A stretch of DNA of 64,000 nucleotides from Begonia masoniana (Eukaryota > Streptophyta > Magnoliopsida > Cucurbitales > Begoniaceae): assembly GCA_022432975.1 (NCBI GenBank), contig CM039510.1:14216381-14280380 (forward strand), written 5' to 3'. Position 1 is the first letter of the stretch. Each line of letters opens with the position of its first letter. Under the pieces are notes generated by a model. It had not been told where the DNA came from and made no database searches. It worked only from the letters and a program-made list of their open reading frames with translations. The position numbers were made by a program, and so were the translations under genes. Below, one piece after another: positions 1,481 to 44,071 of this stretch.

Positions 1481-1499
1481 GATCCCAACATTAAGCATC

Positions 1500-2436: not shown

Positions 2437-2896
2437 TCACTCATACTCCAAATCTTCCGGGTCTGGTAGTTTGTTCAAGTCAACTTGTAAGTACCCGTTT
2501 CTGGAGTGTGCTCGATCTTCGCCGTTGTCGGACGCTTGGTATGGCGACAGAGGGAGCTTTCAAGGGCGTCGACTCGCGTGCCGACCTCCGTCGCTATCTT
2601 CCGTATGTATGCTGCAGAGATATCGCCGGGGGAAGAACTCCAGGTGTATGAGATAAAAACTCAGGATAGTTCAGGCGAGCAGAGGGACCGCGGAGATGGA
2701 AGACGGCGGTGTCGTAAGCCCGAGCGGCGGCGACCGGAGAAGAGTAAGAACCAAGCCAAATCCTTGAGCGCTTATTGGGTTCTCGTATCTCAGCCACCCA
2801 CTTACCCCATTTCCTCATCCTTATCCCTCTGTACACTCTTTCGTTCTCCATTTCTCTTTTTCTCAGAGCTTCTCTCTCTTCATCTCTACCCTCCAT
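2437..2896 (-). pseudogene. AP2/ERF transcription factor, DREB A-5 type, interrupted by two frameshifts
   Basis: This is the only host protein gene I recognise in the window. Residues 22-79 of the first frame (start ATG at 2894-2896) form a complete AP2/ERF DNA-binding domain with the YRG and RAYD elements, the WVAEIRE strand and the WLGSY turn. Val at the WVAEI position favours the DREB side of the family, which binds DRE/CRT-type GCCGAC elements. The frame stops after about 100 residues (TAG at 2594), but the conserved tail continues in other frames. An RKIATEVG...RVDAL block (about 2545-2603) lies in a second frame, reached at a run of five C near 2630. A VDLNKLPDPEDLEYE tail then ends at TGA 2437-2439 in a third frame. 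The DLNxxP tail is the EAR-like repression motif of DREB A-5 proteins such as the RAP2.1 group. Family members are intronless and about 150-200 aa; this locus fits if the two indels are ignored. It is either a recent pseudogene or carries two assembly indels; the conserved residues on both sides favour recent breakage or sequence error over old decay. It is a single gene facing the (GA)n region. Confidence 0.85.
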
Positions 2897-3017
2897 CGGT
2901 TATTCACCTTTCTCTCTCTAAAAAACAACTCCAAAATCTCCAAACTTAATGAATCTTCATCACATGAAAAACCCATCAGCATAAAACGTGCCAACAAAGG
3001 GTTTTTGCTCATTTTCA

Positions 3018-3018
3018 G

Positions 3019-3065
<47 letters not shown>

Positions 3066-3136
3066 GTTGGGTTGTTTATCGTTCTAGTTGGCCTCTAAGG
3101 CTCGCTTACTGAATAACCCTTGTACTGTTCACTGTG

Positions 3137-3167
<31 letters not shown>

Positions 3168-3245
3168 CGTTGGGTTGTTTATCGTTCTAGTTGGCCACTA
3201 AGGCTCGCTACTGAATAACCCTTGTACTGTTCACTGTGGATGAGA
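3018..3245. repeat. (GA)n microsatellites inside a ~104-bp tandem duplication upstream of the ERF gene
   Basis: Two copies of a segment starting ACGTTGGGTTGTTTATCG and ending TTCACTGTGGATGAGA lie at about 3064-3143 and 3166-3243. They differ by a few bases and are each preceded by a GA run (about 3020-3064 and 3142-3166). The whole lies 120-350 bp upstream of the minus-strand ERF start. On the transcribed strand the runs read CT repeats, which are common in plant 5' UTRs and core promoters. Copy number is likely to vary. Confidence 0.8.
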
Positions 3246-3430
3246 TCTACTTACAAGTATATACATTAAATGTTTTTTTCCAATTTTTAATGTTTTCATT
3301 ATTTTATTAGTTATTTTAATAATAAATAAAAAATACTTTGTAATATAAAATCAAGTGATAGATATATTTAGTTTTATATATTGACGAGAGACTGAAATTC
3401 ACCGACTAATCTCACTGAATTTCCTTTATT

Positions 3431-10864: not shown

Positions 10865-10869
10865 GTAAT
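10865..10869. repeat. Target site duplication of element B (left copy)
   Basis: GTAAT precedes the element's TGTAACGTCCC end and is repeated at 20023-20027 immediately after its terminal CTACA. Five bases is the normal length for Ty3 and Ty1 integrases. Confidence 0.95.
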
Positions 10870-17745: not shown

Positions 17746-17749
17746 TAAT

Positions 17750-20022
17750 TGTAACATCACGTAAATTCTACCTTTCTTACTATTCCTAAAAATCCCGTAA
17801 AACTTGAATTTTTCATCTTCATCCATTAATCTTACTCATGTACAGACAATTGATTCATTTAGCAGAAGACATACTAACGTTTTCGTCTCAGGCCGAATTA
17901 CTAAGGAGAATCGACCGATAACACCCTTTGGAAGACAACAGTTCCTATCAGGTTAGATCAAATGAACAGTAGGGTCGACAACTCTTTTTGGAAGACAACA
18001 CTTCCTATCGGGTTTGGACGAATGGTACAGTGGGGGTCAATGTGGTCTCTGTAATGAGATTGGTCGACGTTGTTGTCCACAAAATCGGACAACGTTATCG
18101 TCCACAACATTGGACGACGATGCGTTTTCGTCCACGGGATCGGACGACGCTATCGTCCACAACATTTATTTGTCCACAAATTTTATTCGTCCACGGACTG
18201 TATTCGTCCACAGTCTTTGGACGAATGTCTCGTCCACAGACTTTGGACGAATGTCTTGTCCACAGACTTTGGACGACTGTCTCGTCCACAGACTTTGGAC
18301 AACTTTCTCGTCCATAGACTTTGGACGAATGTCTCATCCACAAACTTTGGACGACTTTCTCGTCCACAGACTTTGGACGACTATTTCGTCCACAGACTTC
18401 GGACGACTTTCTCCCTTACTAAAATACTTAACAACAACTTAGGCAGAGTCACCCTAGACATCTGCCGATCAATAGCCTCCCCTGGCAATCAGTCGGCTGG
18501 CTCTCTAGATTTTTATTTTCAAAGCGCTACTACCCTACCCCTTCTTCCTCCATTAACCATACCAAAATAAGATCCATCATGTTACAACGCCACTACCTCA
18601 TACTTTCTTCAATCACCAAAATACACATCTTTAATTCAAATTATCCAGTAACAAACATCCTAAAATGAATCAACTATACATTTTCTTTTCTAGCTATTTC
18701 ATCACCCTTCAGCCCAACATAAACCCCAAAACCTCAAAATACTTAGTCTTTTGCTCCCACGGGTCAGAATTCCCACCGACTGCACAGCGCACTCCCACAG
18801 GCATTCCTCTTCAACCAGCTTATTCATCTTGCAGAGGGATTTCATTCTCACCTGCTTCAATATCACCTACACCATAGAAACATTCTATGAGCTAAAGGCT
18901 CAGTAAATCTACGTAAATGAAAATGCATGCTATGCATATGCCATTTAGAAAATCATGCATTTGTTTCATTCTTTAGTTTCATAGCAGAGGGTGTCACCGG
19001 AGGTTGACTCTCACCAGATAGAGAGGGCACATCTCGCGGTTAGATAGCCTTTTCCATCTACCGGGGGGAAAACATGTTCCTTTTCTCAGGACAGCCATGT
19101 CTGAACCCCACCCCGACATGACCATAGTTACGTGCATTCATATCTTTTCATTAGTCTTTTCCTTTTTCATGAAAACATAGTGCGGAAGTTGATTTTCATG
19201 CTTGCTCGAAAACATGGTGCATGGACATGTACAATGCATTAATCTTAGACATGTACAATGCATCAATCTTAAAGAAAACATAAAAGAGTACATAGAACCT
19301 AGTAAAAACCTTCTAGCACAATGAATATTCTAAACTACCCATTGAACTTACCCTTAACACTAAAATCACCAAATATCCTTAATTGACGATTTCTGTTATG
19401 GTGTAGGCCAAATCGGCCAAGCAAGTCACGAAGACAAACCTCGGGTCCTCAGCACACCGAACCCTATCCGTGAGCTTTGTTCACCTAAGCCAATCCGCAA
19501 TACACGACATTAAAATCGAGCTTAAACAATCGATTTATCACGAATTCCAGAATTTCAATCCCTAACTCAACAACCCTAATCGTATAACAACTCTATAAAA
19601 ATCGAAGACTAACATCCAAAACGTTAGAGCCTTACCTAGGGTGGCGGTCTAGGAAGGAAACGTGAAGGAAATTGATCGTTTGGAGGAGAAGCCGTTGAAC
19701 CGTGAAGAATCATAGGGGAGGAGAGAAATTTCTTGCCTGTGAAAGGAAAAGGAGGAAAGAGTTAAAGTGAAAGTGGTTTCTCGTAAGGGAGAGAAAAGGA
19801 AGGTGTTTCATTTTCCAAGCTTCTTCCACAAGCTTGACACATGTCACACTCTTACTTGGTGCTCCCAACTACCCCCTTTTTACTTCCTAACTCGCTCCTC
19901 CAACTAGTTGTTTGCTTGGTTGAACTTAGTTTGGTTTATCCTTATATTTCCTTCCATACACATTTTATCCATTTATTAATATATTACACAAAAGTCATAA
20001 TTCAAAAGTCTCGGATGCTACA
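17750..20022 (-). repeat. Element B 5' LTR
   Basis: The plus-strand reading begins TGTAACATCAC and ends GATGCTACA. It matches 10870-13125 with numerous substitutions and a few indels, including a short duplicated ACATGTACAATGCAT word near 19215-19260. It carries the same 26-bp minisatellite at about 18200-18410. Confidence 0.93.
18200..18410. repeat. 26-bp tandem repeat in element B 5' LTR
   Basis: About eight units of the same CGTCCACAGACTTTGGACGA word as in the other LTR are present, but with different point variants (GAATGTCT spacers replacing GACTGTCT). Equal copy number with different variants suggests the array existed before the insertion and that each LTR drifted afterwards. Confidence 0.88.
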
Positions 20023-27989: not shown

Positions 27990-28883
27990 AGAAAATGACA
28001 TAAATGTTTAAAAAATTGCCTTTTGAGTATGATGAGCAGGCAAAAATTAAACTTAAATGCTAAAACAATTAATATTCTATATTGTGCACTCAATAGAGAT
28101 TAATTCAATAGAATATAAAGATGTGATAATGCGCATGAAATTTGATATTTACTTGAAATTACATATGAATGAACAAATCAAGTAAAAGAGAATAAGATTA
28201 GTATGTTTTTTGCATGAATATGAATTCTTCTCCATAGAAAAGAATTAAAATATTAGTCAAATGTTTACTCGATTTTTTAATGTTACTAATAGTTTAAAAG
28301 TGTTAAGTAAAGTTTATCCCAACAAATAGTTTGTTAGGAAAATTCTCTGATGTCTACCTAGAGGTTGGCAACACAAAGTGACAGCAAATCGAGATCTCAA
28401 TGTACTCAAATTAAATGAACTCATTGAATCTTTCATGACACATGAGATAATGATGAAGGCCAACAAAAAAGAAGAGCAAAAAAAGAAGGAAAACTCGAAA
28501 AAGAAAGACATAGCTCTGATAGCTTCATCAAGCAATCAAGTTGAGTCTGAGAAGAATGAAAGGATGAAGAAATAAATTTTGACTCAAAACTTCAACAAGT
28601 TTCTTCAAAGAAGAGTGGCAAGGAAAAAACAGTTACAAAGAATATTGGTCTCAAAAAGATAAGGAAGCTACTTGATACGAGTGTAGAAAGTCGAGGTATT
28701 TCAAAGCCGATTGTCCACTAGCTAAGAAAGCTCAGAAGACCTTTAAGAAAAAGGCAATCTTTGGAATGATAGTGAAGAAGACACATCATCTAGAAACGAG
28801 AAAGTAGCCAACATGTGCTTCATGGCAAAGCAAAGTAAGGTAGGTATTCAATTAGTTATTTAGAAGAAAATATTGATGAAAAT
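27990..28883 (+). pseudogene. Element C (SIRE-like Ty1/copia) gag, left fragment
   Basis: Joined across stops, the frame shows the copia gag (UBN2-type) order: KLNAKTINILYCALNRD, HEI.YLLEITYE, TNQVKENKISM, MFTRFFNVTNSLKVLSK, VRKIL.CLPRGW, then VTANRDLNVLKLNELIESF, a Lys/Glu-rich segment (28440-28575), a knuckle-like region near 28690 and WNDSEEDTSSRNEKVANMC at about 28760-28815. It is decayed and is cut at 28883 by element D (target AAAAT). The rest of the element is at 44072-45465. Confidence 0.78.
28879..28883. repeat. Target site duplication of element D (left copy)
   Basis: AAAAT directly precedes TGTGACGACCCG and is repeated at 44067-44071 after GTGTTACA. Removing D joins two parts of one copia gag. 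Confidence 0.92.
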
Positions 28884-29279
28884 TGTGACGACCCGAAACC
28901 AGACCCGATCGGGGTCCGGGATCGGAGCCATCACTCCGGGACAGTTAACAGAAAACAGGGACTATATTTTTTTTTGTACATTAAACTTTTAAAACATTTA
29001 CAGAGAGAGGGTGAGCCCTCTGGAGTTAAAGCAAACGAGATACAGTTGGCTGGATTACTGAAGTGAATAACAGAGGGGAGGGGGAGGAACAGGGAACAGA
29101 AAGGGCGAAGAAATTAAATAAACGGAATAAACAGGGAGTAAAAGCAGAAATACATAAGTATAAGGCTGGTGGGGAAACTTAATTTAAAAGAGCGGCGATG
29201 GATTTAGATAAGACAAAACAGATGACGTCAGTCGGTAGATGCTAAGTAAAGCTGAATCGGATGTGTGGTGACGTCATAG

Positions 29280-29515
29280 GAAGATGTGATGACGTCATCA
29301 GAAGATATAGGCAGCAGATGAAATCGGAATGTGTGATGACGTCATCGGCAGATATAGGCAGCATGTGGAATCAGAATGTGTGATGACGTCATCGGCAGAT
29401 ATAGGCAGCAGATGGAATCGGAATGTGTGATGACGTCATCTGCAGATATAGGCAGCAGATGGAATCGGAATGTGTGATGACATCATCGGAAGATGTGATG
29501 ACGTCATCGGCGGTA
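29280..29515. repeat. Short 47-bp array block in element D 3' LTR
   Basis: About four to five irregular units carry GATGACGTCATC cores and the words GGCAGATATAGGCAGCAG and GGAATCGGAATGTGTGATGA. Variants here include AGCATGTGGAATCAG and a GATGACATCATC core. It corresponds to the edge of the array in the 5' LTR. Confidence 0.9.
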
Positions 29516-29892
29516 GATGAAGTTTAGACATAGTTTTAAAGGCAAAATTTACAACTTTTGACAGAAAACATATAGACAGAGAGCGTAAAAACAGACATAG
29601 AAGTCCAGATTTCTCGGACCACATCAAAACATGGATCTGGAACACAATAGAAAACATGACAGAAACTTAAGAAAGATCACACTACATGGATAGCTCTAAA
29701 CCAGAACTATCCATGCACAGACTAACAAAAAATATTCCAAACAAATTTCAGAATACTCAAAACATAATTCCACTGTCAAATACAGAGGTTTTAAACATCA
29801 ATACGGTTCCATACTGTTGACTTATAGATTGTTTAGTCATAATTTGTTTTTGATTATGTATTTGTAGAATTAGGTGTACAATTTGATTATGT

Positions 29893-30893
29893 CGGCAGAT
29901 ATAGGCAGCAGATGGAATCGGAATGTGTGATGACGTCATCGGCAGATATAGGCAGCAGATGGAATCGGAATGTGTGATGACGTCATCGGCAGATATAGGC
30001 AGCAGATGGAATCGGAATGTGTGATGACGTCATCGGCAGATATAGGCAGCAGATGGAATCGGAATGTGTGATGACGTCATCGGCAGATATAGGCAGCAGA
30101 TGGAATCGGAATGTGTGATGACGTCATCGGCAGATATAGGCAGCAGATGGAATCGGAATGTGTGATGACGTCATCGGCAGATATAGGCAGCAGATGGAAT
30201 CGGAATGTGTGATGACGTCATCGGCAGATATAGGCAGCAGATGGAATCGGAATGTGTGATGACGTCATCGGCAGATATAGGCAGCAGATGGAATCGGAAT
30301 GTGTGATGACGTCATCGGCAGATATAGGCAGCAGATGGAATCGGAATGTGTGATGACGTCATCGGCAGATATAGGCAGCAGATGGAATCGGAATGTGTGA
30401 TGACGTCATCGGCAGATATAGGCAGCAGATGGAATCGGAATGTGTGATGACGTCATCGGCAGATATAGGCAGCAGATGGAATCGGAATGTGTGATGACGT
30501 CATCGGCAGATATAGGCAGCAGATGGAATCGGAATGTGTGATGACGTCATCGGCAGATATAGGCAGCAGATGGAATCGGAATGTGTGATGACGTCATCGG
30601 CAGATATAGGCAGCAGATGGAATCGGAATGTGTGATGACGTCATCGGCAGATATAGGCAGCAGATGGAATCGGAATGTGTGATGACGTCATCGGCAGATA
30701 TAGGCAGCAGATGGAATCGGAATGTGTGATGACGTCATCGGCAGATATAGGCAGCAGATGGAATCGGAATGTGTGATGACGTCATCGGCAGATATAGGCA
30801 GCAGATGGAATCGGAATGTGTGATGACGTCATCGGCAGATATAGGCAGCAGATGGAATCGGAATGTGTGATGACGTCATCGGCAGATATAGGC
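29893..30893. repeat. Homogeneous 47-bp array in element D 3' LTR (~21 units)
   Basis: About 21 head-to-tail units are nearly identical. Each unit reads CGGCAGATATAGGCAGCAGA, then TGGAATCGGAATGTGTGATG, then ACGTCAT. Each junction rebuilds the palindrome GATGACGTCATC, which contains TGACGTCA, the core site of plant bZIP (TGA/C-box) factors. The block starts abruptly after 80 bp of F-type LTR sequence (29810-29892). Confidence 0.96.
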
Positions 30894-31304
30894 CTCATCG
30901 GAGATATAGCAGTAAACGGAATCGGCAGAGGGATAACCTATGACAGAACCACTATTTGGCGGTGGATGGGAATAAGACAAAACATGTACAGTATCTATCG
31001 GTTAGGATGAAGTTTCGACATAGTTTTAAAGGCAAAATTTACAACTTTTGACAGGAAAACATATAGACAGAGAGCTTAAAACAGACATAGAAGTCCCAGA
31101 TTTCTCGGACCACATCAAAACATGGATCTGGAACACAATAGAAAACATGACAGAAACTTAAGAAAGATCACACTACATGGATAGCTCTAAAACCAGAAAC
31201 TATCCATGCACAGACTAACAAAAAATATTCCAAACAAATTTCAGAATACTTCAAAACATAATTCAACTGTCAAATACAGAGGTTTTAAACATCAATACAG
31301 GTTC

Positions 31305-32739
31305 CATACTGTTGACTTATAGATTGTTTAAGTCATAATTTGTTTTTGATTATGTATTTGTATAATTAGTGTACAATTTGATTATGTGTATTTAAAGAGA
31401 ATAATGAATATGAGTTTATTTGGAAATACCCCTGAAAAGGGTATTTTAGTTGTCTAATAAATCGGTTTGAGTATACAGAAGTAAATAGCAAAACAGGCTT
31501 GCATATACCGATCGCTGTTGAAGCTACTCCTGCCGATGCCGGTTCATGACGTGTTGAGGTGCATATGCCGATAACATTTACAAGTCTCATCTGCCCGTGA
31601 AGCTTTAAGCGAGCATCTACCGATGATGTGGTCAGTGCTTATGTGTTTCATCTGCCGAAGCGTTTTTGAAGATATCTGCCGATGACGTGTCAAGATGCAT
31701 CTGCCGAAGCATTTTTGAAGATATCTGCCGATGACGTGTCAAGATGAATCTGCCGATAGCATTTGACGCTACTCATACCGATGATGTTTTTAAGCAGCTC
31801 CTGCCGATTGACTAAACGACAAAAGGAGATGCTGACTAAAGCTTGCACCTACCGATCACGTTTTACAATGCTCCTGCCGATGGAGTTTAAAGCTGCTTCT
31901 GCCGATAAAAGTTGAAGATGCTTCTGCCGATGGAATTCAAGTATACACCTGCCGATGGATCTTTAGGATACATCTGCCGATGGCATTTCAAGCTGCATCC
32001 ACCGATGACGTGTCTCTGCTCATAAGTTGCATCTGCCGGTGAACTTCCGCCAGAATTCAAATTAGCCGCGAAGCTACAGTGACGTCGTTTTCAGCCATAA
32101 CTCCAGAACATTAATGGCGACGACGATTTGCAACTACAAACGGCAACGGCTACCTGAACTTGTACGGAAGCTGCTCCAACGGTAATTAAACTTCTATTAT
32201 TGGATAAGGAGCATTTAAGCCAAGCATTTTTGAAGACAGAGTATATAAGCCGAGCTTAGAGCACGAAGTCACAACTTTTGCGAATTTGATTTCCTGAGCC
32301 CTAACATGCAAATCATACTCTGTATTCTCAACCTACATCTCTCAACTCCAAAACTTGAGATTCTGTTTTTTTTTAGAGTTTGTAGATTATTGTAATCTGT
32401 CTTTCAAACCTGAAAATCCTGTAAGGCAGTGGATTGACGCCCGCTAAGTTCAATCCAGGATTGTGAAAGGCTGTGGATCGAAGCCCGTAAGTTCGATCAG
32501 ATTTTCTCGTTGAGGAGAAGTAAGAAATCTTCAAGGGGGAGCCTTGGAGCGTGGACGTAGGCAGTTTGGCCGAACCACGTAAAAATACTGGTGTCGAATT
32601 TCTCTTTCTCTCTCTTTATATTATTTGATTACTTGTGCTAAATCTAAGATTAATCAAGAAGAGAAATTAGGTTGAATTGCAATTAAAATTAAAAAGTCTA
32701 ATTCACCCCCCTCTTAGACAATTCCGATCCTACACATAC
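31305..32739. mobile_element. Element F: solo LTR of copia type inside element D 3' LTR
   Basis: The 1,425-bp LTR proper is 31310-32734, beginning TGTTGACTTAT and ending GATCCTACA, flanked by CATAC at 31305-31309 and 32735-32739. The corresponding empty site is seen in D's other LTR at about 42930 (TTCCATACATCGTTT). The terminal AATTCACCCCCCTCTT phrase is typical of Ty1/copia LTR ends. No internal region remains, so it is a recombination product. Its first 80 bp also occur at 29810-29892. Confidence 0.88.
31500..32045 (+). repeat. CTGCCGATG motif cluster in solo LTR F
   Basis: About twenty degenerate copies of a core (CTGCCGATG, CTACCGATG or ACCGATGATG), often preceded by GCAT or GATAT and followed by ACGTGTC, are spaced roughly 25-40 bp apart. 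Two 50-bp stretches (about 31668-31742) repeat almost exactly, with GATATCTGCCGATGACGTGT in each. The cluster looks like a diverged minisatellite; TGACGTG cores could bind bZIP factors. Confidence 0.8.
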
Positions 32740-33931
32740 ATCGTTTTACAAACCACAAAGTAGTACAGAACTGGACCTACATTTCAAATGTTTTAAAACT
32801 TCAAAAGATGGTACAATATTGGACATAACTTCAGAAAACACATTCTCACAGGATTAACTCTTGTCTGACTGCAGCAGCCAAACCCCGTGAGCTCGATCCT
32901 CTAACTACATCAGCTAGTCATTTTGAGGCACAAGGTCCTCATCTGGAGTATCCGTACCTACAACAGAGAGTTCATCTATGAGCCTAGAGCTCAGTAAGAA
33001 CATGGAATGCAGTGTGCATATGCTATGCATGAACATTTTCAAATACATGAACATTACATTACATTACATTACATTACATTACATTTCACTGGACAGGAAG
33101 GTATAAGTGGGAAGAGGAGCTGGCGCAAAAGGAATACATGCCACAACAGGACATAACAGGAGTACATGACAGGATGCCAGTCCTCGTCCACACTTAACCA
33201 TACATTTCATTACAGGTTTTATCTTACTTAACTTCAAACCGTGTGCAGAAAACATTTTCATGACTTTCAGAGAAAAACGTGTATGCATGAACATTCATAG
33301 ACATGCAACAGAATAATAAGCAGGATATAAAACAGAACACACTTAACCTAAAACATAACCTATGGTTTAACTACCCAACAGAAATCCCGACAACATAAAA
33401 CCTAGTACTTCCGTATTGTAGGGCCTTAAGGGCCAAACCTATAAGTATGAACTTACCTGTTGCTGCAGAGTTGATAGTCCTGAACGTCTCGGAAATGCTC
33501 GAACCCTAGTAGAAAAATAGAAAGGAGCCGAGGAGATCGAAGTAGCTTCGATGGCTGATTGTCGACTGGAAGAGAGAGTGCCGAGAAGAGAATGGAGAGA
33601 GAGCAGAGAAGTGAAATGAAGAGGATTTCACGTAGGAGGAGGAACTTAACTTCCTCAACAAGCTACCACGTGTCAGCTATCCATTTGCTATCTCCCACCA
33701 ACCATAATTTCTCCCCAATTTGCCCTTCCATGCATTTCAAACTTAGTGTTTTGTTAGTTACACATTAGTTAGGTTCTCCCCACACTAAATGCTCCAACAT
33801 TTTACAATTGAATTGTTATCGTATTTATGGCAATTTAAATCCATACACTAATTCAACAGAATATTACACGGCCAAAATGCCGGGTGTTATATTCCACCCA
33901 CCTTAACAGAAATTTTGTCCCCAAAATTTGC

Positions 33932-34628
33932 CTAAGCAAAGAGGTCCGGATATTGGGCCCTGACATCCTCCTGTCTTTCCCATGTGGCTTCCTCTACATT
34001 ATGATTTCGCCATAAAACTTTCACCAATGGGACCACTCGATTGCGCAACACCTTAAGTGAAGTATCCAGTATCTGTATGGGCCTTTCTTCATATGTCAGC
34101 GTCGGCATGATATCAAAGTCCACATGCTCCACGATCTGAGTTGGATCTCGTACGCACTTTCTCAGCATTGACACATGGAAAACATTGTGAACTCCATCCA
34201 TTGACGCTGGCAACTGTAGTCTGTAGGCCATGCTCCCAATTCTCTTCAAAATGGGAAAAGGGCCAACAAACCTTGGGCTTAGCTTCCCTTTCTTGCCGAA
34301 TCTCATCACACCCTTGAAAGGTGACACTTTTAAGAACACTTCATCACCGTCGGCAAACTCTAACTCCCTTCTCCTGTGGTCTGTGTAGCTTTTCTGTCGA
34401 CTCTGAGCAATTTTTATTCGTTGTTTGATAGCAGCTATCACCTAAAACATCTGCTGTAATATCTTAGGGCCGATAAGCTTGGTTTCTCCGACCTCATCCC
34501 AACACAATGGGGATCTACACCTTCTGCCGTAAAGAGCCTCATAAGGAGCCATGCCAATCGTAGCCTGATAGCTATTGTTGTAGGCAAACTCCACGAGTGG
34601 CAAGTATCTACTCCAAGGAGCATGAAAT
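33932..34628 (-). pseudogene. Element D integrase C-terminal half and chromodomain
   Basis: After the E insertion the frame resumes HAPWSRYLPLVEFAYNNSYQ, AMAPYEALYGRRC-type block, a TAG near 34440, then IKIAQSRQKSYTDHRRRELE, GDEVFLKVSPFKGVMRFGKK, VGPFPILKRIGSMAYRLQLP, VFHVSMLRKCVRDP, and the terminal chromodomain LVKVLWRNHNVEEATWERQE ending PDLFA at 33932. The chromodomain is complete for the Tekay type. Sequence on the two sides of E joins in frame across the GAAAT target. Confidence 0.92.
34624..34628. repeat. Target site duplication of element E (left copy)
   Basis: GAAAT precedes TGATGAGAACC and recurs at 37020-37024 after CACATCA. The duplicated bases fall within the LEFH codons of D's integrase. 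Confidence 0.95.
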
Positions 34629-35416
34629 TGATGAGAACCACAGGTATATGAAACCCGAGACCCTTCAACAACGCGGAATTAGAAACTCAGGAACGCCTGT
34701 GAAATCAAGTATAAGGAACTTGATCCCAATCGAACCTTGCCGACGGAACCAAAGTTATCAAACAAGGAGCTTGACCCGTAACCGAACTTGTGGTTAGAAC
34801 CAAAGCTATCAAGTTGATCTTTCAAGTTTTGACTTGAAGAAGATCTAGTTCTTCACAAAGTACAAAAGAGAAAATTCTCACAAAGAGTAACTCAAAATCA
34901 TGTATATTGCTTATTAATGTTGAAGCGCCTATGCCTTTAAATAGGCTACAAAATATCCTAAAAGTAATTAGAAAATATTACTAAACTGACAATTAGGAAA
35001 CTTTCTAAAACAATACTTAGGAAAACTTTCTAAATCTATGATTAGGAAAGCTTTCTAAAACTATAATTAAGAAACTTTCTAAAACTATAATTAAGAAACT
35101 TTCTAAAACTATAATTAGGAAATAATTGCTTGCCAAATTTGTTTTGTTGTTGTGCTTCCATCTCTCTTGCCACTAATCTTTGGGTAGTTTTCAAGTATCT
35201 TCGGCCTTCTTTTCTTCCCAAGCATCCTCTTCAATACTTAACAAATTTATTAATTTCAGCTCTTTTTGGAAAGAATCTTTCTCTTGGATTTCTATAATCA
35301 ATCCATTTAAGGCTTCTTGCATTTTCTTGATTCTTGATCTTGTCATTGGACCTCCAATACCTTGACATGGATCTTTAACTTTGGGCTTGAAGTTGGTTGC
35401 ACTCTTATTCACATCA
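34629..35416 (-). repeat. Element E 3' LTR
   Basis: Plus-strand reading starts TGATGAGAACCACAGG and ends TTCACATCA. It holds a candidate TATA element (minus strand CTATTTAAAG, about 34936-34945) and several repeats of TAGGAAACTTTCTAAAAC-type phrases (34985-35110). Confidence 0.94.
34936..34945 (-). promoter_or_regulatory. Candidate TATA box of element E LTR
   Basis: CTATTTAAAG on the minus strand is unchanged in the other LTR (about 36538-36547). No start-site evidence beyond the motif. Confidence 0.4.
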
Positions 35417-35457
35417 TTCCCTCTCTCCTCGAAAAGATTCGTCCTCGAATCCCTCAC
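35191..35457 (-). pseudogene. Orphan pol C-terminal tail in element E
   Basis: An 88-codon open frame starts in the interior (RDSRTNLFEERGND, upstream of the polypurine tract) and continues into the LTR with GIGGPMTRSRIKKMQEALNG and ends EEKKAEDT. The PMTRSRxKK motif is the hallmark of the pol C-terminal extension of a plant Ty3 group, also seen as RGATTRSRSK in element A. The rest of pol is gone. The second LTR carries the LTR-encoded part again (36794-37019). It shows that E descends by internal deletion from a full-length Ty3 element. Confidence 0.85.
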
Positions 35458-36217
35458 TCCCTCACGTGTTTACACTAGATTATATGTCTCTCCACTCGTG
35501 TTTCCCTCAAATAATGGCTTTTATATGATAGTCTCACCCTCTTGCCTTTTACCACTCAATTTTCTCTTTAATCTCTTTATGTAAAAACATAATCAAGAGA
35601 AAAAATTCAACAAGCAAAAACAAGTAAGATCAAACTTTTTAACTCAAAATTCTAATTTCCAAAATCGGTTAGAATCAAACAATTTAGAATAGGATGTAGG
35701 ACTTCAAGAGAGTAAACTTTTCAAGAAATGAAACTTTTACGAAAGGAAACTTTTCACGAAAGGAAACTTTTCAAGAAAGAAAACGTTTTACGAAATGAAA
35801 CTTTTCAAGAAAGGAAACTTTTCACAAAAGGAAACTTTTCAAGAAAATAAACTTTTCACAAAAGGAAACTTTTCAAGAAAGGGAATTGAGACAATCAAAG
35901 AAAAGAATTGAATAATCACACCAAAAAGCAAATAATGATGCATATAATGACGAAAAAGAAATTGATACTCGAGATATTGATACTCGAAATATTGAGATTT
36001 TTTTTTTTGGAAAGAAGAAAACTTGACAAATAAAGAGAATCGTTGATTCAATGACTTTTTTTTTTTCGAATTTCCGAATTTTTTTTTTCGAATTTTCGGA
36101 TTTTTTTTTTTTTCAAATTTCAATTTTTTTTTTTGAATTTTCAAAGAAAGAAAATCTAGAAGAAGAAGAAGAAGAAAAAAAAACAATAAAGATAGAAACT
36201 TGAATCTAGGAGCCAAA
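35417..36217 (-). repeat. Element E interior: GAAACTTTTCA repeats and poly-T tracts
   Basis: From 35700 to 35885 the phrase GAAACTTTTCAAGAAAG is repeated about ten times with ACGAAA/CACAAA variants. From 36000 to 36180 there are long T runs broken by CGAATTTTC words and an (AGA)n run. An open frame across 35839-36216 is Phe/Lys low-complexity and not a credible gene. Confidence 0.8.
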
Positions 36218-36229
36218 GCTCTGATACCA
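36218..36229 (-). other. Element E primer binding site (tRNA-iMet)
   Basis: The minus strand reads TGGTATCAGAGC, followed by TTTGGCT, two bases from the LTR end at 36232. It orients E as minus. Confidence 0.92.
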
Positions 36230-36231
36230 AA

Positions 36232-37019
36232 TGATGAGAACCACGGGTATATGAAACCCGAGACCCTTCAACAACGCGGAATTAGAAACTCAGGAACGCC
36301 TGTGAAATCAAGTATAAGGAACTTGACCCCAATCGAACCTTGCCGACGGAACCAAAGTTATCAAACAAGGAGCTTGACCCGTAACCGAACTTGTGGTTAG
36401 AACCAAAGCTATCAAGTTGATCTTTCAAGTTTTGATTTGAAGAAAATCTAGTTCTTCACAAAGAACAAAAGAGAAAATTCTCACAAAGAGTAACTCAAAA
36501 TCATGTATATTTCTTATTAATGTGGAAGCGCCTATGCCTTTAAATAGGCTACAAAATATCCTAAAAGTAATTAGGAAATATTACTAAAATGATAATTAGA
36601 AAACTTTCTAAAACAATACTTAGGAAAACTTTCTAAATCTATGATTAGGAAAGCTTTCTAAAACTATAATTAAGAAACTTTCTAAAACTATAATTAAGAA
36701 ACTTTCTAAAACTAGAATTAGGAAATAATTGCTTGCCAAATTTGTTTTGTTGTTGTGCTTCCATCTCTCTTGCCACTAATCTTTGGGTAGTTTTCAAGTA
36801 TCTTCGGCCTTCTTTTCTTCCCAAGCATCCTCTTCAATACTTAATAAATTTATTAATTTCAGCTCTTTTTGGAAAGAATCTTTCTCTTGGATTTCTATAA
36901 TCAATCCATTTAAGGCTTCTTGCATTTTCTTGATTCTTGATCTTGTCATTAGACCTCCAATACCTTGACATGGATCTTTAACTTTGGGCTTGAAGTTGGT
37001 TGCACTCTGATTCACATCA
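36232..37019 (-). repeat. Element E 5' LTR
   Basis: It is the same length as the 3' LTR and differs at only a handful of positions (for example CACGGGT for CACAGGT and GACCCC for GATCCC near the outer end). Confidence 0.94.
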
Positions 37020-37812
37020 GAAATTCCAGTACACACGACCTTAGCATATCCTTCAGTATTTGTATTGTTCTTTCAGATTGTCTGTCATTCTGTGGATGAA
37101 ATGTCGTGCTGAAGTCTAATCTAGTGCCCAAGGAGCTCTGCAAACTTTTCCAAAACCTGGAAGTGAATCTAGGATCCCGGTCCGAAACAATTGACACCGG
37201 AATACCATGCAGCTTGACAATCTCACTAATATATAGCTCAGCATACTGATCCATGGAGAATGTCATCTTCACAGGTAGAAAATGGGCCGACTTCGTCAAT
37301 CTGTCCACTATGACCCATATGCTATTGTGGCCTTTAACTGTCCTTGGAAGGCCAACAACAAAGTCCATTGTGATGTTCTCCCACTTCCATTCGGGAATCG
37401 GAAGAGGCTGAAGCATTCCACTTGGTCGTTGATGTTCAGCTTTGACTTGTTGACATATCATACAAGACTCCACATACTTGGCCACTTCATTCTTCATATT
37501 CGGCCACCAAAAGTGAAGTTTCAAGTCCTGATACATCTTTGTGCTTCCAGGATGCACAGAGAAAGAAGATGAATGGGCTTCCGATAAGATATGCTTCCGT
37601 AGCTCTTCGTCTTTCGGAACATACAATCTGTTTTTGAACTTCAGAACTCCATCTCCCGAATAACTGAAATCGGAAAAAGCCATTGGTACTTTGCTCACCA
37701 TATCAGCCATCTCCTTTGAATTGGTCTTCTGGGCTTCCTTAATGCGGTCCAGGACGGTGGGCCGTAGGGTTAAGTCTGCTAGTATGGCCGATAGCCCAGA
37801 AACTATCTCCAT
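37020..37812 (-). pseudogene. Element D integrase, N-terminal half
   Basis: It reads the HHCC domain ([32 protein letters not shown]) and the catalytic core: [16 protein letters not shown] with the first Asp, [14 protein letters not shown] with the second, [17 protein letters not shown] with the Glu. All three catalytic residues are kept. The frame is separated from RNase H by a 7-bp tandem duplication (GATATGG twice, near 37808-37821) and broken at 37020 by element E. Confidence 0.93.
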
Positions 37813-38764
37813 ATCCCATATCGAACTTCTGTATCTCCGTCCTCAAAGGCATTGATACGACCGACATAACTGGTTGCACAGTAGCTGGCATCCTGCTCAG
37901 TGCATCAGCTACCACATTAGCTTTACCAGGGTGGTATTTGATCTCAACATCGTAATCTTTCACAAATTCTAACCACCGCCTCTGCCTCATATTCAACTCT
38001 TTCTGAGTAAAGAGGTACCTCAAACTCTTGTGATCAGAAAACACCTCACATGATTGCCCGTACAAATGGTGTCTCCATACTTTCAGCACAAATACAACTG
38101 CCGCTAACTCAAGGTCGTGTGTAGGGTAGTTTTCTTCATGGCTCTTCAATTGTCGGGATACATATGCTACCACTTTCCCTTCTTGCATTAGTACACATCC
38201 CAAGCCAATCTTTGACGCATCACAGTATACGCTGAATTTACCGTCTTCAACTGGCAATACTAACATAGGAGCAGTGGTTAATTTCTGCTTAAGTGTCTGA
38301 AAGCTCACCTCACATGCTTCAGACCACTTGAACTTGATTTCCTTCCTCGTTAAGCTGGTCATAAGTTTCGCTATCACCGAAAATCCTTTGATAAACTTTC
38401 TGTAATAACCAGCTAACCCGATAAAGCTCCGTACCTCACTGGCATTCCTCGGCCTTGGCCATTCTTTCACTGCCAGAATTTTGGCTGGATCCACGGACAC
38501 TCCTTCTGCCGACACCACATGGCCTAGGAAGTTAATCCTGCTCAACCAGAACTCGCACTTTGACAGTTTTGCATACAACTGGTGCTGTTTCAGAGTCGAC
38601 AGCACAATTGCTAAGTGCCCCTCGTGCTCGGCCTCACTTCTGGAGTAAACCAGGATGTCGTCGATGAAGACGATTACAAATTTATCCAAGAAGTCCTGGA
38701 ATATCCTGTTCATCAAGTCCATAAATGCCGCCGGAGCATTAGTTAACCCGAACGACATCACCAA
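37739..38764 (-). pseudogene. Element D RT C-terminal part and RNase H
   Basis: An open segment of 341 codons begins [20 protein letters not shown] and contains the intact catalytic box [12 protein letters not shown], the [17 protein letters not shown] linker, RNase H with [34 protein letters not shown] and [11 protein letters not shown], and the [13 protein letters not shown] linker. It is separated from the RT N-terminus by a one-base deletion near 38808 and loses its frame at the 7-bp duplication before integrase. Confidence 0.94.
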
Positions 38765-39888
38765 GAACTCGTAATGCCCGTACCAGGTCCTGAAGGCGGT
38801 CTTTGGAAATCATCTGCTCTAACCTTCAACTGGTAATAACCGGAGCGCAAGTCAATCTTAGAAAATACCCGAGCCCCCTGTAGCTGGTTGAATAAATCAT
38901 CGATTCTTGGCAACGGGTACTTATTTCGGACAGTCAACTTGTTCAGCTCACGGTAGTCAATACACATCCGTAGGGACCCATCCTTCTTCTTGACAAACAA
39001 GACGGGAGCACCCCACGGAGAGAAACTAGGGCGCACAAAGCCCTTGTCCACCAACTCCTTTAGCTGAGTCTTCAACTCCCTTAGCTCTATTGGCGCTATA
39101 CGGTACGGATTCTTCGACACCGGTTCAGCACCAGGATACACATCGATCTCAAACTCTATCTCACGATCCGATGGCAATCCCGGTAGGTCATCTAAGAAAA
39201 CCTCTGAGAAGTTTCGAACTACCGGAATATTTTGACGTTCCACCTGACCTTGCATCTGAACATCTACTACGTGGGCAAGAAGTCCTACACATCCTGACCT
39301 CATCAGCTGTTGAGCCTTCAAGGAGGATATAACAGGCATACTATGTTTCTTCGGTACAGCCTGATAGGAGAACTCTACTTCATTCGGGCACTTAAAAGAC
39401 ACGAGCCCGGACCTGCAGTTGATGGTGGCGTGATGTCGAAACAGCCAGTCCATCCCTAGAATTACTTCGTATCCTTTCATATCGATGATGATAAGATTGG
39501 CATACAATTTTTGGTCTCCAACTGACACTATATCACCCTGCATTGCCTGCTCGGAGTGCATAAACTCTCCGGACGGTAGCATAATGCTGTAGGGTTTATC
39601 TGATGGCGTACAACAAAACTTCTGTCTAACTACGAAGTCTATTGCCACGAACGAATGTGTGGCTCCCGTGTCCCACAAGGTATAAGCCGGTGCATCACAT
39701 ATCAAGATTGTACCTGTAAGTGCTGTGTGCTGATCGGCATCATCAACGTCCTCCATCATTGCAAAAACCCTTGGTACTGCAAGGTTTGGTCTCGTGTCCG
39801 GCATCGGGCAATCCCGAACATGATGGCCTCCTTTGCCACATCGGAAACATTGGCCAGTAAAGAGCCTGCAGTCTCTCGTATGATTTCT
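38758..39888 (-). pseudogene. Element D zinc knuckle, protease and RT N-terminal part
   Basis: Directly in frame after the gag stop come a knuckle [14 protein letters not shown], the protease loop [31 protein letters not shown], then RT with [40 protein letters not shown] and [15 protein letters not shown]. The frame is lost at a single missing base after RADD (about 38808). Gag-Pol is one continuous frame in this family, so the three lesions are the only breaks. Confidence 0.93.
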
Positions 39889-40752
39889 CTAGCAGCATGG
39901 GCATACGGGAAGTTGAGGAGCTCCCATAGGTCTTTTCCCTTTGTCCTGGTAAACAGCAACCTCATTTGGTCTTTTCACACCACTGTTATGTTGCTGCCGT
40001 GGTTGCCCAAACTGTCCCTTTTGTTGTTGTTGTTGCTGCTGAGGGGCATCCTGCATGATTCTCTTTGATGTATATCTCTGAGACTTTGCCTCTAAGGCTT
40101 CCAACTGATAAGCTTTAGCTACCACCTTTGTGTATGGGGCCTCGTCAAATCCCCCATATGTAATCCCTCGTAAGAGGTCCATCTTCAAACCCTGGATAAA
40201 TTGATGCACCTTATTTTCATCAGTGGCCACTAGGTGGGGTGCATAACGGGATAGTGAATCGAACTTCTGAACATACTCCGCCACCGTTCCAAACTGTCGT
40301 AGTCGAGAGAATTCCAGTAACTTCTCCTTCCTCATGCTGCGGTCAAAGTACTTCTCGTAGAAGAGTGTTTTAAATCCCTCCCAGCTTAATGCCACAGTTG
40401 TTGACTGCACTGTATCCCACCGAAATCCAGCACTCTTGGTGAGATTAAACGAGGCACACATCACTTTCTTATTTTCCTCCACCTCTGCATAATTCAACAT
40501 GAGTTCAATCTGCCGGATCCATTCCTCAGCATGAGTAGGGACCGTCGATAACCTATAAAATGCAGGCGGCTGGAGTCGCCAAAATCTTTCTCCACTAGAG
40601 TCACGTGGAGCATTTGCATGGTTATTATGATTCCCATTATCTTCTCTGGCCATCATGCGTTCCATCATTCGTGACTGAATGCCGACCAACTCGGTTAGAC
40701 GATCGAGGGCGTCGCCTCTGTCATTTGCATCACCCTGATTTCCTCTCACCAT
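39889..40752 (-). pseudogene. Element D gag
   Basis: A 287-codon open frame starts MVRGNQGDANDRGDALDRLT and shows the retrotransposon gag core: AEEWIRQIELMLNYAEV, LSWEGFKTLFYEKYFDRSMR, GTVAEYVQKFDSLSRYAPHL, VHQFIQGLKMDLL, and a Q-rich stretch before the knuckle. It ends at an in-frame TAG (39889-39891); the next codons read on into the knuckle and protease, so this is a nonsense change rather than the natural end. The start is the first ATG, 141 bp from the primer site. Confidence 0.93.
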
Positions 40753-40892
40753 TCTAGAAAATCTTATAAACAGAATAACTAAATTAAATAAACAGAACTT
40801 TTACAGAAACTTAAACACTTACAGTTGGTGGAGCGATCTCACGTGGCGGGTTGCGCAGTCAGACATTTTACATAATCAATTTTAAAACCTTG

Positions 40893-40907
40893 TCCTCTCT
40901 GATACCA
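40893..40907 (-). other. Element D primer binding site (tRNA-iMet)
   Basis: The minus strand reads TGGTATCAGAGAGGA; eleven bases match the tRNA-iMet complement. It sits four bases inside the LTR end at 40912 and gives the minus orientation. Confidence 0.88.
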
Positions 40908-40911
40908 AAAC

Positions 40912-43900
40912 TGTGACGACCCAAAACCAGACCCGATCGGGGTCCGGGATCGGAGCCATCACTCTGGGATAGTTAACAGAAAACAGGGACTATATTTTTT
41001 TTTTTGTATATTAAACTTTTAAAACATTTACAGAGAGAGGGTGAGCCCTCTAGAGTTAAAGCAAACGAGATACAGTTGGCTGGATTACTGAAGTGAATAA
41101 CAGAGGGGACGGGGAGGAACAGGGAACAGAAAGGGCGAAGGAATTAAATAAACGGAATAAACAGGGAGTAAAAGCAGAAATACATAAGTATAAGGCTGGC
41201 GGGGAAACTTAGTTTAAAAGAGCGGCGATGGATTTAGATAAGACAAAACCATAGACGTCAGTCGGTAGATGCTGAGTAAAGCTGAATCGGATGTGTGGTG
41301 ACGTCATCGGAAGATGTGATGACGTCATCGGCAGATATAGGCAGCAGATGAAATCGGAATGTGTGATGACATCATCGGCAGATATAGGCAGCAGGTGGAA
41401 TCGGAATGTGTGATGACTTCATCGGCAGATATAGGCAGCAGATGGAATCGGAATGTGTGATGATGTCATCGGCAGATATAGGCAGCAGATGGAATCGGAA
41501 TGTGTGATGACGTCGAATCGGAATGTGTGATGACGTCATCGGCAGATATAGGCAGCAGATGGAATCGGAATGTGTGATGACGTCATCGGCAGATATAGGC
41601 AGCAGATGGAATCGGAATGTGTGATGACGTCATCGGCAGATATAGGCAGCAGATGGAATCGGAATGTGTGATGACGTCATCGGCAGATATAGGCAGCAGA
41701 TGGAATCGGAATGTGTGATGACGTCATCGGCAGATATAGGCAGCAGATGGAATCGGAATGTGTGATGACGTCATCGGCAGATATAGGCAGCAGATGGAAT
41801 CGGAATGTGTGATGACGTCATCGGCAGATATAGGCAGCAGATGGAATCGGAATGTGTGATGACGTCATCGGCAGATATAGGCAGCAGATGGAATCGGAAT
41901 GTGTGATGACGTCATCGGCAGATATAGGCAGCAGATGGAATCGGAATGTGTGATGACGTCATCGGCAGATATAGGCAGCAGATGGAATCGGAATGTGTGA
42001 TGACGTCATCGGCAGATATAGGCAGCAGATGGAATCGGAATGTGTGATGACGTCATCGGCAGATATAGGCAGCAGATGGAATCGGAATGTGTGATGACGT
42101 CATCGGCAGATATAGGCAGCAGATGGAATCGGAATGTGTGATGACGTCATCGGCAGATATAGGCAGCAGATGGAATCGGAATGTGTGATGACGTCATCGG
42201 CAGATATAGGCAGCAGATGGAATCGGAATGTGTGATGACGTCATCGGCAGATATAGGCAGCAGATGGAATCGGAATGTGTGATGACGTCATCGGCAGATA
42301 TAGGCAGCAGATGGAATCGGAATGTGTGATGACGTCATCGGCAGATATAGGCAGCAGGTGGAATCGGAATGTGTGATGACTTCATCGGCAGATATAGGCA
42401 GCAGATGGAATCGGAATGTGTGATGACTTCATCGGCAGATATAGGCAGCAGATGGAATCGGAATGTGTGATGATGTCATCGGCAGATATAGGCAGCAGAT
42501 GGAATCGGAATGTGTGATGACGTCATCAGAAGTTTTGATGATGTCATCGGCAGGAGGGATAACCTATGATAAAACCACTGTTTGGCGGTTGATGGGAATA
42601 AGACAAAACATGTACATTATCTATCGGTAGATGAAGTTTAGACTTAGTTTTAAAGGCAAAATTTACAACTTTTGACAGGAAAACATATAGACAGAGAGCT
42701 TAAAACAGACACAGAAGTCCCAGATTTATCGGACCACATCAAAACATGGATCTGGAACACAACAGAAAACATGACAGAAACTTAAGAAAGATCACACTAC
42801 ATGGATAGCTCTAAAACCAGAAACTATCCATGCACAGACTAACAAAAAATATTCCAAACAAATTTCAGAATACTTCAAAACATAATTCAACTGTCAAATA
42901 CAGAGGTTTTAAACATCAATACAGGTTCCATACATCGTTTTACAAACCACAAAGTAGTACAGAACTAGACCTACATTTCAAATGTTTTAAAACTTCAAAA
43001 GATGGTACAATATTGGACATAACTTCAGAAAACACATTCTCACAGGATTAACTCTTGTCTGACTGCAGCAGCCAAACCCCGTGAGATCGATCCTCCAACT
43101 ACATCAGCTCGTCATTTTGAGGCACAAGGTCCTCATCTGGAGTATCCATACCTACAACAGGGAGTTCATCTATGAGCCTAGAGCTCAGTAAGAACATGGA
43201 ATGCAGTGTGCATATGCTATGCATTAACATTTTCAAATACATGAACATTACATTACATTACATTTCACTGGACAAGAAGGTATAAGTGGGAAGAGGAGCT
43301 GGCGCAACAGGAATACATGCCACAACAGGACATAACAGGAGTACATGACAGGATGCCAGTCCTCGTCAACACTTAACCATACATTTCATTACAGGTTTTA
43401 TCTTACTTAACTTCAAACCGTGTGCAGAAAACATTTTCATGACTTTCAGAGAAAAACGTGTATGCATGAACATTCATAGACAAGCAACAGAGTAATAAGC
43501 AGGATATAAAACAGAACACACTTAACCTAAAACATAACCTATGATTTAACTACCCAACAGAAATTCCGACAACATAAAACCTAGTACCTCCGTTTTGTAG
43601 GGCCTTAAGGGCCAAACCTATAAGTATGACCTTACCTGTTGCTGCAGAGTTGATAGTCCTAAACGTCTCGGAAATGCTCGAACCCTAGTAGAAAAACAAA
43701 AAGGAGCCGAGGAGATCGAAGTAGCTTCGATGGCTGATTGTCGACTGGAAGAGAGAGTGCTGAGAAGAGAATGGAGAGAGAGAGAAGTGAAATGAAGAGG
43801 GTTTCACGTAGGAGGAGGAACTTAACTTCCTCAACAAGCTGCCATGTGTCAGCTATCCATTGGCTATCTCCCACAACCATAATTTCTCTCTAATTTGCCC

Positions 43901-44066
43901 TTCCATGCATTTCAAACTTAGTGTTTTGTTAGTTACACATTAGTTACGTTCTCCCCACACTAAATGCTTCAACATTTTACAATGGAATTGTTATCGTATT
44001 TATGGCAATTTAAATCCATACAATAATTCAACAGAATATTACACGGCCAAAATACCAGGTGTTACA
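40912..44066 (-). repeat. Element D 5' LTR (3.16 kb)
   Basis: Plus-strand reading begins TGTGACGACCCAAAACC and ends GGTGTTACA. It contains one continuous 47-bp array (about 41300-42540) and the empty target site of F near 42930. In the element's direction the array lies between the LTR start and the primer-site end, where U3/R promoter sequence is expected. Confidence 0.95.
41300..42540. repeat. 47-bp tandem array in element D 5' LTR (~25 units)
   Basis: The units are the same as in the 3' LTR. The centre (about 41530-42350) is nearly identical from unit to unit. The left edge (41391-41515) and right edge (42356-42530) share the same rare variants (GCAGGTGGAATCGG, GATGACTTCATC, GATGATGTCATC) in the same order. 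One unit is truncated at 41510-41520 (GACGTCGAATCGG). Confidence 0.96.
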
Positions 44067-44071
44067 AAAAT

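What the first reader, a model, noticed from the sequence alone, without database searches (positions are those of the whole stretch)
41300..42540. LTR-borne array of about 25 perfect TGACGTCA (bZIP) sites
Every ~47 bp the LTR of element D repeats GATGACGTCATC, a palindrome with the TGACGTCA core bound by plant bZIP (TGA, C-box) proteins. With the second LTR the element carries roughly 45-50 such sites in one 15-kb insertion. In the element's direction the array sits in the part of the LTR where U3 enhancers are expected. It could be a strong stress- or hormone-responsive enhancer, a decoy that titrates bZIP factors, or neutral satellite growth. The near absence of core mutations in the homogeneous part could reflect recent amplification rather than selection.
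Basis: partly seen in the sequence, partly recalled or inferred. Interest (0 to 1): 0.82.

Follow-up and report, generated by a model that had tools for sequence, protein, structure and literature searches.

The report
bZIP-site array in retrotransposon LTR
A jumping element in a plant genome carries dozens of copies of a well-known regulatory DNA word in its control region; a short cluster of this word is an old feature of a large family of such elements and probably switches them on, while the long uniform array looks like later local growth, possibly distorted by genome assembly.

Summary
The array is real. The window holds 49 TGACGTCA (0.61 expected), all in one LTR retrotransposon (minus strand, about 28884-44066, TSD AAAAT): 21 in the 5' LTR, 28 in the 3' LTR. 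The 3' LTR count is unreliable: 29513-29891 is an indel-rich repeat of 31004-31389 that looks like an assembly join. In the window's own 795-Mb genome, each of the 32 related LTR stretches that I scored carries TGACGTCA-type slots, 5-13 per stretch, spaced mainly 21, 46-48 and 80 bp. Of 97 one-mismatch cores, 85 are CpG transitions; the other core bases vary less than the flank. The core is paired with CGGNAGA in a composite counted 146,906 times genome-wide (reversed-pattern control 4); TGACGTCA pairs 20-50 bp apart number 59,965 (CpG-matched control 4,482). I read the short cluster as a lineage-wide U3 enhancer for bZIP plus an unknown partner, active when unmethylated. The long uniform array is secondary: another element has 47 extra units in one LTR and none in its sister (that array too lies beside a suspect duplication), and degenerate cores are amplified as well. 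The uniform blocks are younger than the insertion, or smoothed by assembly. Precedents: ERV9/LTR12, IAP CRE, HTLV-1. No binding data exist here.

The parts
28884..44066 (-). Element D: Ty3/gypsy LTR retrotransposon with both ends and TSD, chromodomain-type integrase, coding strand minus
   Evidence: Ends, PBS and TSD read; Pfam domains
28879..28883 (.). Target-site duplication AAAAT (left)
44067..44071 (.). Target-site duplication AAAAT (right)
40912..44066 (-). 5' LTR, 3.15 kb
28884..33890 (-). 3' LTR, 5.0 kb, enlarged by a nested solo LTR and a suspect duplication
41299..42546 (-). 5' LTR array: 29 core positions, 21 perfect TGACGTCA
41515..42357 (-). Uniform block with exact 47-bp period, 843 bp
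41299..41514 (-). Low-side edge units (2 of 6 cores perfect); ends in a truncated 23-bp unit
42358..42546 (-). High-side edge units (1 of 5 cores perfect), with a 21-bp unit
29223..29510 (-). 3' LTR array, first part (7 perfect cores)
29892..30893 (-). 3' LTR uniform block, exact 47-bp period, 1002 bp, 21 perfect cores
29513..29891 (.). Indel-rich duplicate of 31004-31389; probable assembly join or unpolished sequence
31310..32734 (+). Nested solo LTR (Copia-like ends, recalled, not confirmed) with CTGCCGA repeats; shares 17-mer ATATCTGCCGATGACGT with the array unit
33932..40800 (-). gag, protease, RT, RNase H, integrase and chromodomain pieces in separate frames; interrupted by 34626-37019

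Best explanation
The thing has two layers. (1) A family-wide U3 control module: 5-13 slots per LTR of a composite site, TGACGTCA (bZIP core) followed after 1-2 bases by CGGNAGA, spaced mainly 21 and 46-48 bp. It most likely acts as the enhancer of the LTR promoter: bZIP dimers plus an unidentified partner bind it when the core CpG is unmethylated and drive the genomic RNA. After insertion the CpG is methylated, binding stops, and the core decays to TGATGTCA or TGACATCA. (2) The long uniform 47-bp array is a secondary expansion of one unit inside an already inserted LTR by unequal exchange or slippage, not needed for enhancer function, with a length that the assembly does not fix. Shown: presence, conservation pattern, genome-wide abundance. 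Suggested but open to assembly error: expansion after insertion. Inferred: bZIP binding, enhancer role, methylation.
For: All 32 LTR stretches scored carry core slots; none was chosen by its core, though 20 were found by a 20-mer flank that adjoins a core. In these, U3 pieces match element D at 67-97% (loci L009-L028). Of 445 flank-anchored places, 147 have a perfect core, 82 one mismatch, 17 two, 17 three and 182 four or more, a two-peaked distribution; of 97 one-mismatch cores 85 are the two CpG transitions. Mismatch per site in 291 slots: non-CpG core 0.021, core CpG 0.187, flank 0.094. Composite count 146,906 against 4 (a core with CGGNAGA on both sides counts twice); paired cores 59,965 against 4,482. 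Other unit lengths built on the same core: 36 bp, 47 bp of other sequence, 57/22 bp, 54 bp, 77 bp. Secondary growth: L031/L046 has 47 extra 21-bp units, its sister LTR L032 a 9-slot cluster only; in six other pairs slot numbers differ by at most 2. At 55 substitutions in 1893 LTR bases, the 843- and 1002-bp uniform blocks should each have gathered about 12 and 15 changes since insertion; they hold none. Mechanism precedents read as passages: IAP LTR TGACGTCA, CREB1 binding blocked by CRE methylation, CRE loss halves reporter activity (PMC9729108); LTR12 U3 repeats (PMC11853044).
Against: No expression, methylation or occupancy data. The TATA box and start site were not located (one search found one weak TTATA), so 'U3' is by position. 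With looser slot thresholds the contrast shrinks (4 mismatches: non-CpG core 0.048, flank 0.101) and at 5 mismatches reverses (0.134, 0.116) as chance matches enter. Slots within a family are not independent. Arrays with degenerate cores are amplified as well: L035 (34 CpG-transition and 2 perfect cores) and L049 (70 and 32), and a TGACGCCA array at C1:4804179-4805345. The L031 array, the main case for one-sided growth, lies beside an indel-rich duplication and may be an assembly product.
Confidence: 0.55

Rival explanations
1. Neutral satellite growth: palindrome-rich short repeats expand by slippage or unequal exchange, and the bZIP core is a passenger.
For: One-sided array in L031/L032, amplified degenerate cores in L035 and L049, TGACGCCA array, other palindromic arrays without TGACGTCA in the same genome: 26-bp TCGTCCAC units at 11320-11528 and 18196-18413 and a 20-bp TGTCGACA array.
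Against: Does not explain why non-CpG core bases vary less than the flank at the stricter thresholds, why LTRs with U3 pieces only 67-75% identical to D still hold several perfect cores, or why the same two-part composite is so frequent.
Confidence: 0.25
2. The uniform arrays are wholly or mostly assembly products (contig joins, over-polishing or graph loops); the true LTRs have ordinary clusters. This concerns layer 2 only and can hold together with the enhancer reading.
For: Indel-rich duplications beside the uniform array in element D's 3' LTR (10 one-base indels, 4 substitutions) and in L031 (15 and 14), against 5 and 55 in clean comparisons of D. The 5' LTR's low-side edge repeats part of its high-side edge series, with a truncated unit between. 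Zero differences in 843 and 1002 bp.
Against: Irregular long arrays exist (L034, L049), so real expansion is likely to happen; no indel-rich duplication was seen beside the 5' LTR's array; L031's second copy against its sister also has some one-base indels (5 to 14 substitutions), so that comparison is not clean.
Confidence: 0.35
3. Decoy: the sites titrate bZIP factors.
For: Very high site number; LTR12 transcripts are reported to sequester NF-Y (PMC11853044 passages), and TE-borne E2F sites are suggested to dilute E2F (PMC12595863 passages).
Against: The CpG-transition excess suggests methylation, which would block most binding; no selective reason for the element to titrate. No test here.
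Confidence: 0.05
4. Silencer, insulator or host-recognition module: the composite is bound by a repressor or a chromatin factor.
For: Strict two-part grammar with an unidentified second motif.
Against: No clear reason for an element to keep a silencing site; CRE-type LTR sites known from animals activate (passages).
Confidence: 0.1

Closest known systems
ERV9 / LTR12 U3 enhancer (human); PMC11853044, passages read
   Same: U3 holds 5-17 tandem repeats of about 41 nt, each with factor sites (NF-Y, GATA-2, MZF1), variable in number between copies
   Different: Different factors and host kingdom; here a bZIP core and unit lengths of 21-80 bp; binding not shown here
IAPLTR1/1a CRE (mouse); PMC9729108, passages read
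   Same: Perfect TGACGTCA in the LTR, CpG in the core
   Different: The passages speak of a CRE in the LTR, not of an array; CREB1 binding and methylation control are measured there, inferred here
HTLV-1 21-bp repeats (viral CRE); PMC506788, passages read
   Same: Repeated bZIP sites in an LTR enhancer; a 21-bp unit also occurs here
   Different: Works there with the viral activator Tax; no such gene was looked for or noticed here; repeat number there is small (recalled: three)
E2F sites amplified by transposons in Brassica; Henaff 2014, known only through PMC12595863 passages
   Same: A transposon-borne factor site of very high genomic number
   Different: There mostly MITEs and Helitrons; here LTR clusters and arrays with a composite motif
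Retand elements with tandem repeats between pol and 3' LTR; PMC11963269, passages read
   Same: Plant Ty3/gypsy elements with family-specific tandem arrays
   Different: Arrays lie in the internal region, not in the LTR; the term 'transcription factor' does not occur in that text

Membership tests
Ty3/gypsy chromovirus | gag, protease, RT, RNase H, integrase in this order with chromodomain after integrase | tested here: met
   the chromodomain match (E 0.00073, 19.8 bits) is below Pfam's cut-off, as is rve (21.4 bits); SH3_Tf2-1, H2C2, RT and RNase H matches are above theirs
Ty3/gypsy chromovirus | LTRs with TG..CA ends, 5-bp TSD, tRNA-Met primer site | tested here: met
   AAAAT on both sides, PBS TGGTATCAGAG; the 3' LTR's inner end reads TA instead of TG; PBS identity recalled
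Tekay/Del lineage | Placement in the RT tree | not tested
   Name recalled only; no tree built
U3 tandem-repeat enhancer of the LTR12 kind | Tandem factor sites in U3, number varying between copies | tested here: met
   U3 by position only
U3 tandem-repeat enhancer of the LTR12 kind | Factor binding and enhancer activity | not testable with these tools
   no experimental data
CRE-driven LTR (IAP kind) | Perfect TGACGTCA in the LTR | tested here: met
CRE-driven LTR (IAP kind) | Methylation-sensitive bZIP binding | not testable with these tools
   Indirect sign only: 85 of 97 one-mismatch cores are CpG transitions
Plant bZIP (TGA/C-box) target | Palindromic ACGT-centred core bound by plant bZIP | tested here: inconclusive
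   Core sequence present; which bZIP, if any, binds is recalled knowledge
Transposon-amplified factor-site network | Most genomic copies of the site lie in transposable elements | tested here: inconclusive
   Of 10 extra loci, 6 match LTR pieces of L050 or L053 in the rows shown, 1 matches L052 only, 2 match only the 54-bp array of L012 (not shown to be an LTR), 1 (L061) nothing; the loci were chosen by the composite and all lie near one end of one contig

The most novel reading that the evidence does not exclude
One LTR-retrotransposon lineage has seeded a plant genome with of the order of 100,000 copies of a composite bZIP-plus-partner site, kept by selection in the active lineage against fast CpG decay, with repeat number as a tunable strength dial; other LTR families share the same module (17-mer shared with the nested LTR), so enhancer modules pass between families. 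The host's bZIP network would then sit in a sea of transposon-borne sites opened whenever methylation drops.
Probability: 0.3. Interest if true: 0.85.

Novelty: new variant of a known kind. Interest (0 to 1): 0.6.

Why it matters
If right, a large share of the strongest bZIP sites in this genome would be transposon-borne, CpG-gated and concentrated in arrays. That offers a natural test of how an LTR lineage keeps promoter sites alive against methylation decay, and whether site number sets retrotransposon activity. It also warns that ChIP or DAP peaks and site counts in such genomes depend on how arrays were assembled.

Tried and rejected
Rejected: that the sites belong to this one insertion. 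Rejected: that the array at L053:1484-1718 is in a Copia LTR; it lies in a TSD-flanked stretch with gypsy-type ends (1040-3262, TSD GTATA; type by recalled end sequence) that interrupts Copia gag. Rejected: that the whole 49-site count can be taken at face value. A first slot scan used a wrong spacer (78, 81 and 97 slots at 3, 4 and 5 mismatches) and was replaced. The nested LTR was not confirmed as Copia: its genome searches did not complete. The protein search (120 of 7993 hits listed) showed an RT common in flowering plants; host species not identified. Viral, phage, plasmid and prokaryote collections were not searched, as unsuited.

Literature, all in the held open library: LTR retrotransposon, TGACGTCA, bZIP, tandem repeat: 0 papers; 76 papers, 20 listed; 85 papers with at least 5 of 6 terms, 20 listed; TGACGTCA, retrotransposon, plant: 10 papers listed; by title and start of abstract none is on a plant LTR with this site, one is the mouse IAP paper; as-1, retrotransposon, long terminal repeat, plant, bZIP: 1 paper, a genome assembly. 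Searches looked for precedents. I found no report of this plant module in these listings; listed papers other than the six opened by passages were not read, and subscription journals are mostly missing.

Position-opened genome counts are incomplete: TGANNTCANCGGNAGA 90,189 and TGACGNNANCGGNAGA 73,888 (the same request twice by mistake), but the baseline TGACGTCANCGGNAGA and the flank-opened count did not complete, so only a lower bound follows: at least 16,301 places differ at the CpG. A shifted-spacer control for the composite and the plain TGACGTCA count did not complete either, so the tightness of the 1-2 base spacing has only the reversed-pattern control.

Full report
What is there. The window lies at C9:14216381-14280380 of a 795-Mb assembly in 308 contigs, a flowering plant to judge by the relatives of its RT. 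Element D occupies about 28884-44066 on the minus strand, with TSD AAAAT on both sides and a primer site TGGTATCAGAG next to the 5' LTR. Pieces of gag, protease, RT, RNase H, integrase and a chromodomain-type end are found, in separate frames and interrupted by another insertion at 34626-37019, so this copy's coding region is broken. TGACGTCA occurs 49 times, all in D's LTRs, against 0.61 expected.

Array anatomy. The 5' LTR has 29 core positions, 21 perfect. The uniform block (41515-42357) has an exact 47-bp period for 843 bp; outside it 8 of 11 core positions are altered, 7 of these 8 at the CG and one by a truncated unit. In sense orientation the array spans about positions 1505-2766 of a 3154-bp LTR. 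The 3' LTR has 7 cores in 29223-29506 and 21 in a 1002-bp uniform block, 29892-30893.

An assembly warning. The 3' LTR continues after its first array part into U3 and the first ~80 bp of a nested LTR, then jumps back into the uniform array and repeats the same stretch. The two copies differ by 4 substitutions and 10 one-base indels in 375 aligned bases; three clean stretches of the two LTRs differ by 55 substitutions and 5 one-base indels in 1893. The same layout is in another element: in L031 a 520-bp stretch of U3 stands before and after the array, with 14 substitutions and 15 one-base indels between the copies. This spectrum fits unpolished long-read sequence at a join. Array lengths in such places are not trustworthy. 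A caution against overreading: L031's second copy against its sister LTR also has 5 one-base indels to 14 substitutions, and no such duplicate was seen beside the 5' LTR's array, though its low-side edge units repeat part of the high-side series.

Family comparison. The 20-mer flank of the unit occurs 472 times in the genome (152 forward, 320 reverse, control 0). The LTR's terminal 190 bp gave 3155 first-look candidates, of which 40 were scored, matching at 88-100%, the window's own two included. I scored 32 LTR stretches: the window's 5' LTR, 20 loci found by the 20-mer flank and 11 found by the LTR end. None was chosen by its core, but the 20-mer adjoins a core, so those 20 were bound to have at least one slot. 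I left out of this count D's 3' LTR, L031 and L034 (long arrays), and L033 and L036 (the same LTRs as L025 and L026). Each of the 32 carries 5-13 core slots in unique contexts, at least 2 of them perfect; together 176 perfect, 85 CpG transitions and 12 other one-mismatch cores. Anchored on the flank motif alone, 445 places split into two peaks (147 perfect, 82 with one mismatch, 17, 17, then 182 with four or more). In 291 slots with at most 3 mismatches, mismatch per site is 0.021 for non-CpG core bases, 0.187 for the core CpG and 0.094 for the flank; with 4 allowed (321 slots) 0.048, 0.207 and 0.101; with 5 (408 slots) 0.134, 0.262 and 0.116, where chance matches enter and the contrast is lost. 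I read this as core constraint in the active lineage followed by CpG decay after insertion.

Sister LTRs. Eight element pairs, D included, have U5-side divergence K of 0.020-0.037, roughly 0.8-2.9 million years at recalled plant rates. In six pairs the slot numbers of the two LTRs differ by 2 or less. In one, an LTR carries 47 extra 21-bp units and its sister a 9-slot cluster; this is the array beside the L031 duplication, so it may be real growth or an assembly product. D carries long arrays in both LTRs. Since D's LTRs differ by 55 substitutions in 1893 bases, the two uniform blocks should each have gathered about 12 and 15 changes since insertion; they have none, so they are younger than the insertion or smoothed by assembly. 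Arrays of degenerate cores exist (L035, L049; TGACGCCA), so amplification does not need a perfect core.

Genome scale. TGACGTCA pairs 20-50 bp apart: 59,965, against 115 for the reversed word and 4,482 for the CpG-matched TGTCGACA, where nearly all listed places are one array. The composite TGACGTCA-N1,2-CGGNAGA: 72,323 plus 74,583, control 1 plus 3; because the core is a palindrome, a core with CGGNAGA on both sides counts twice. The listed places, all on C1, show several unit types. Ten further loci picked from the list: six match LTR pieces of L050 or L053 in the rows shown, one matches L052 only, two match only the 54-bp array of L012, one (L061) nothing. L050 is a gypsy element, 69% identical to D's coding region over 2.2 kb, with 36-bp units in its LTRs.

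Shared module. The nested LTR at 31310-32734 shares ATATCTGCCGATGACGT with the array unit, in the same sense orientation; the longest match in 1000 shuffles of either sequence was 13. The local alignment scored 60 against a shuffle maximum of 56 (0 of 1000 reach 60) and 26 in the other orientation. Its Copia assignment rests on recalled end sequences.

How it most likely works. The short cluster is an LTR enhancer of the CRE kind. In mouse IAP LTRs, CREB1 binding to TGACGTCA is blocked by methylation and loss of the site halves reporter activity (PMC9729108, passages). Human LTR12 has a U3 with 5-17 tandem repeats of factor sites (PMC11853044, passages). HTLV-1 uses 21-bp bZIP repeats (PMC506788, passages). 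The partner that would read CGGNAGA is unknown. The long uniform array is a later expansion. Binding, activity and methylation are inference.

Verdict.

Noticed in passing
window 11320-11528 and 18196-18413: A repeated pair (10866-13125 and 17746-20022, 91% identical) carries a 26-bp array with the imperfect palindrome TCGTCCACAGACTTTGGACGA and no TGACGTCA.
   Followed up: partly
window 34626-37019: Insertion inside D's coding region with 791-bp ends of 98% identity (34626-35416 and 36229-37019), splitting integrase from chromodomain.
   Followed up: no
window 31310-32734: Nested solo LTR with 12 CTGCCGA motifs, many about 25 bp apart, and TGACGTG cores, sharing a 17-mer with the array unit.
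   Followed up: partly
L012:19-700: 54-bp array with TGACGTCA of a different family, similar to L058 and L060.
   Followed up: partly
G000 C1:13312777-13314774: 20-bp array of another palindrome, TGTCGACA.
   Followed up: no
G000 C1:4804179-4805345 and 4813544-4814129: Arrays with core TGACGCCA before CGGCAGA, a non-palindromic variant.
   Followed up: no
L050:860-980: Long run of G (about 25) inside a 36-bp array, possibly a sequencing or assembly fault.
   Followed up: no
L010:3860-4242: A stretch that by eye resembles the region just outside the LTR lies inside the array, a rearrangement or a join fault.
   Followed up: no
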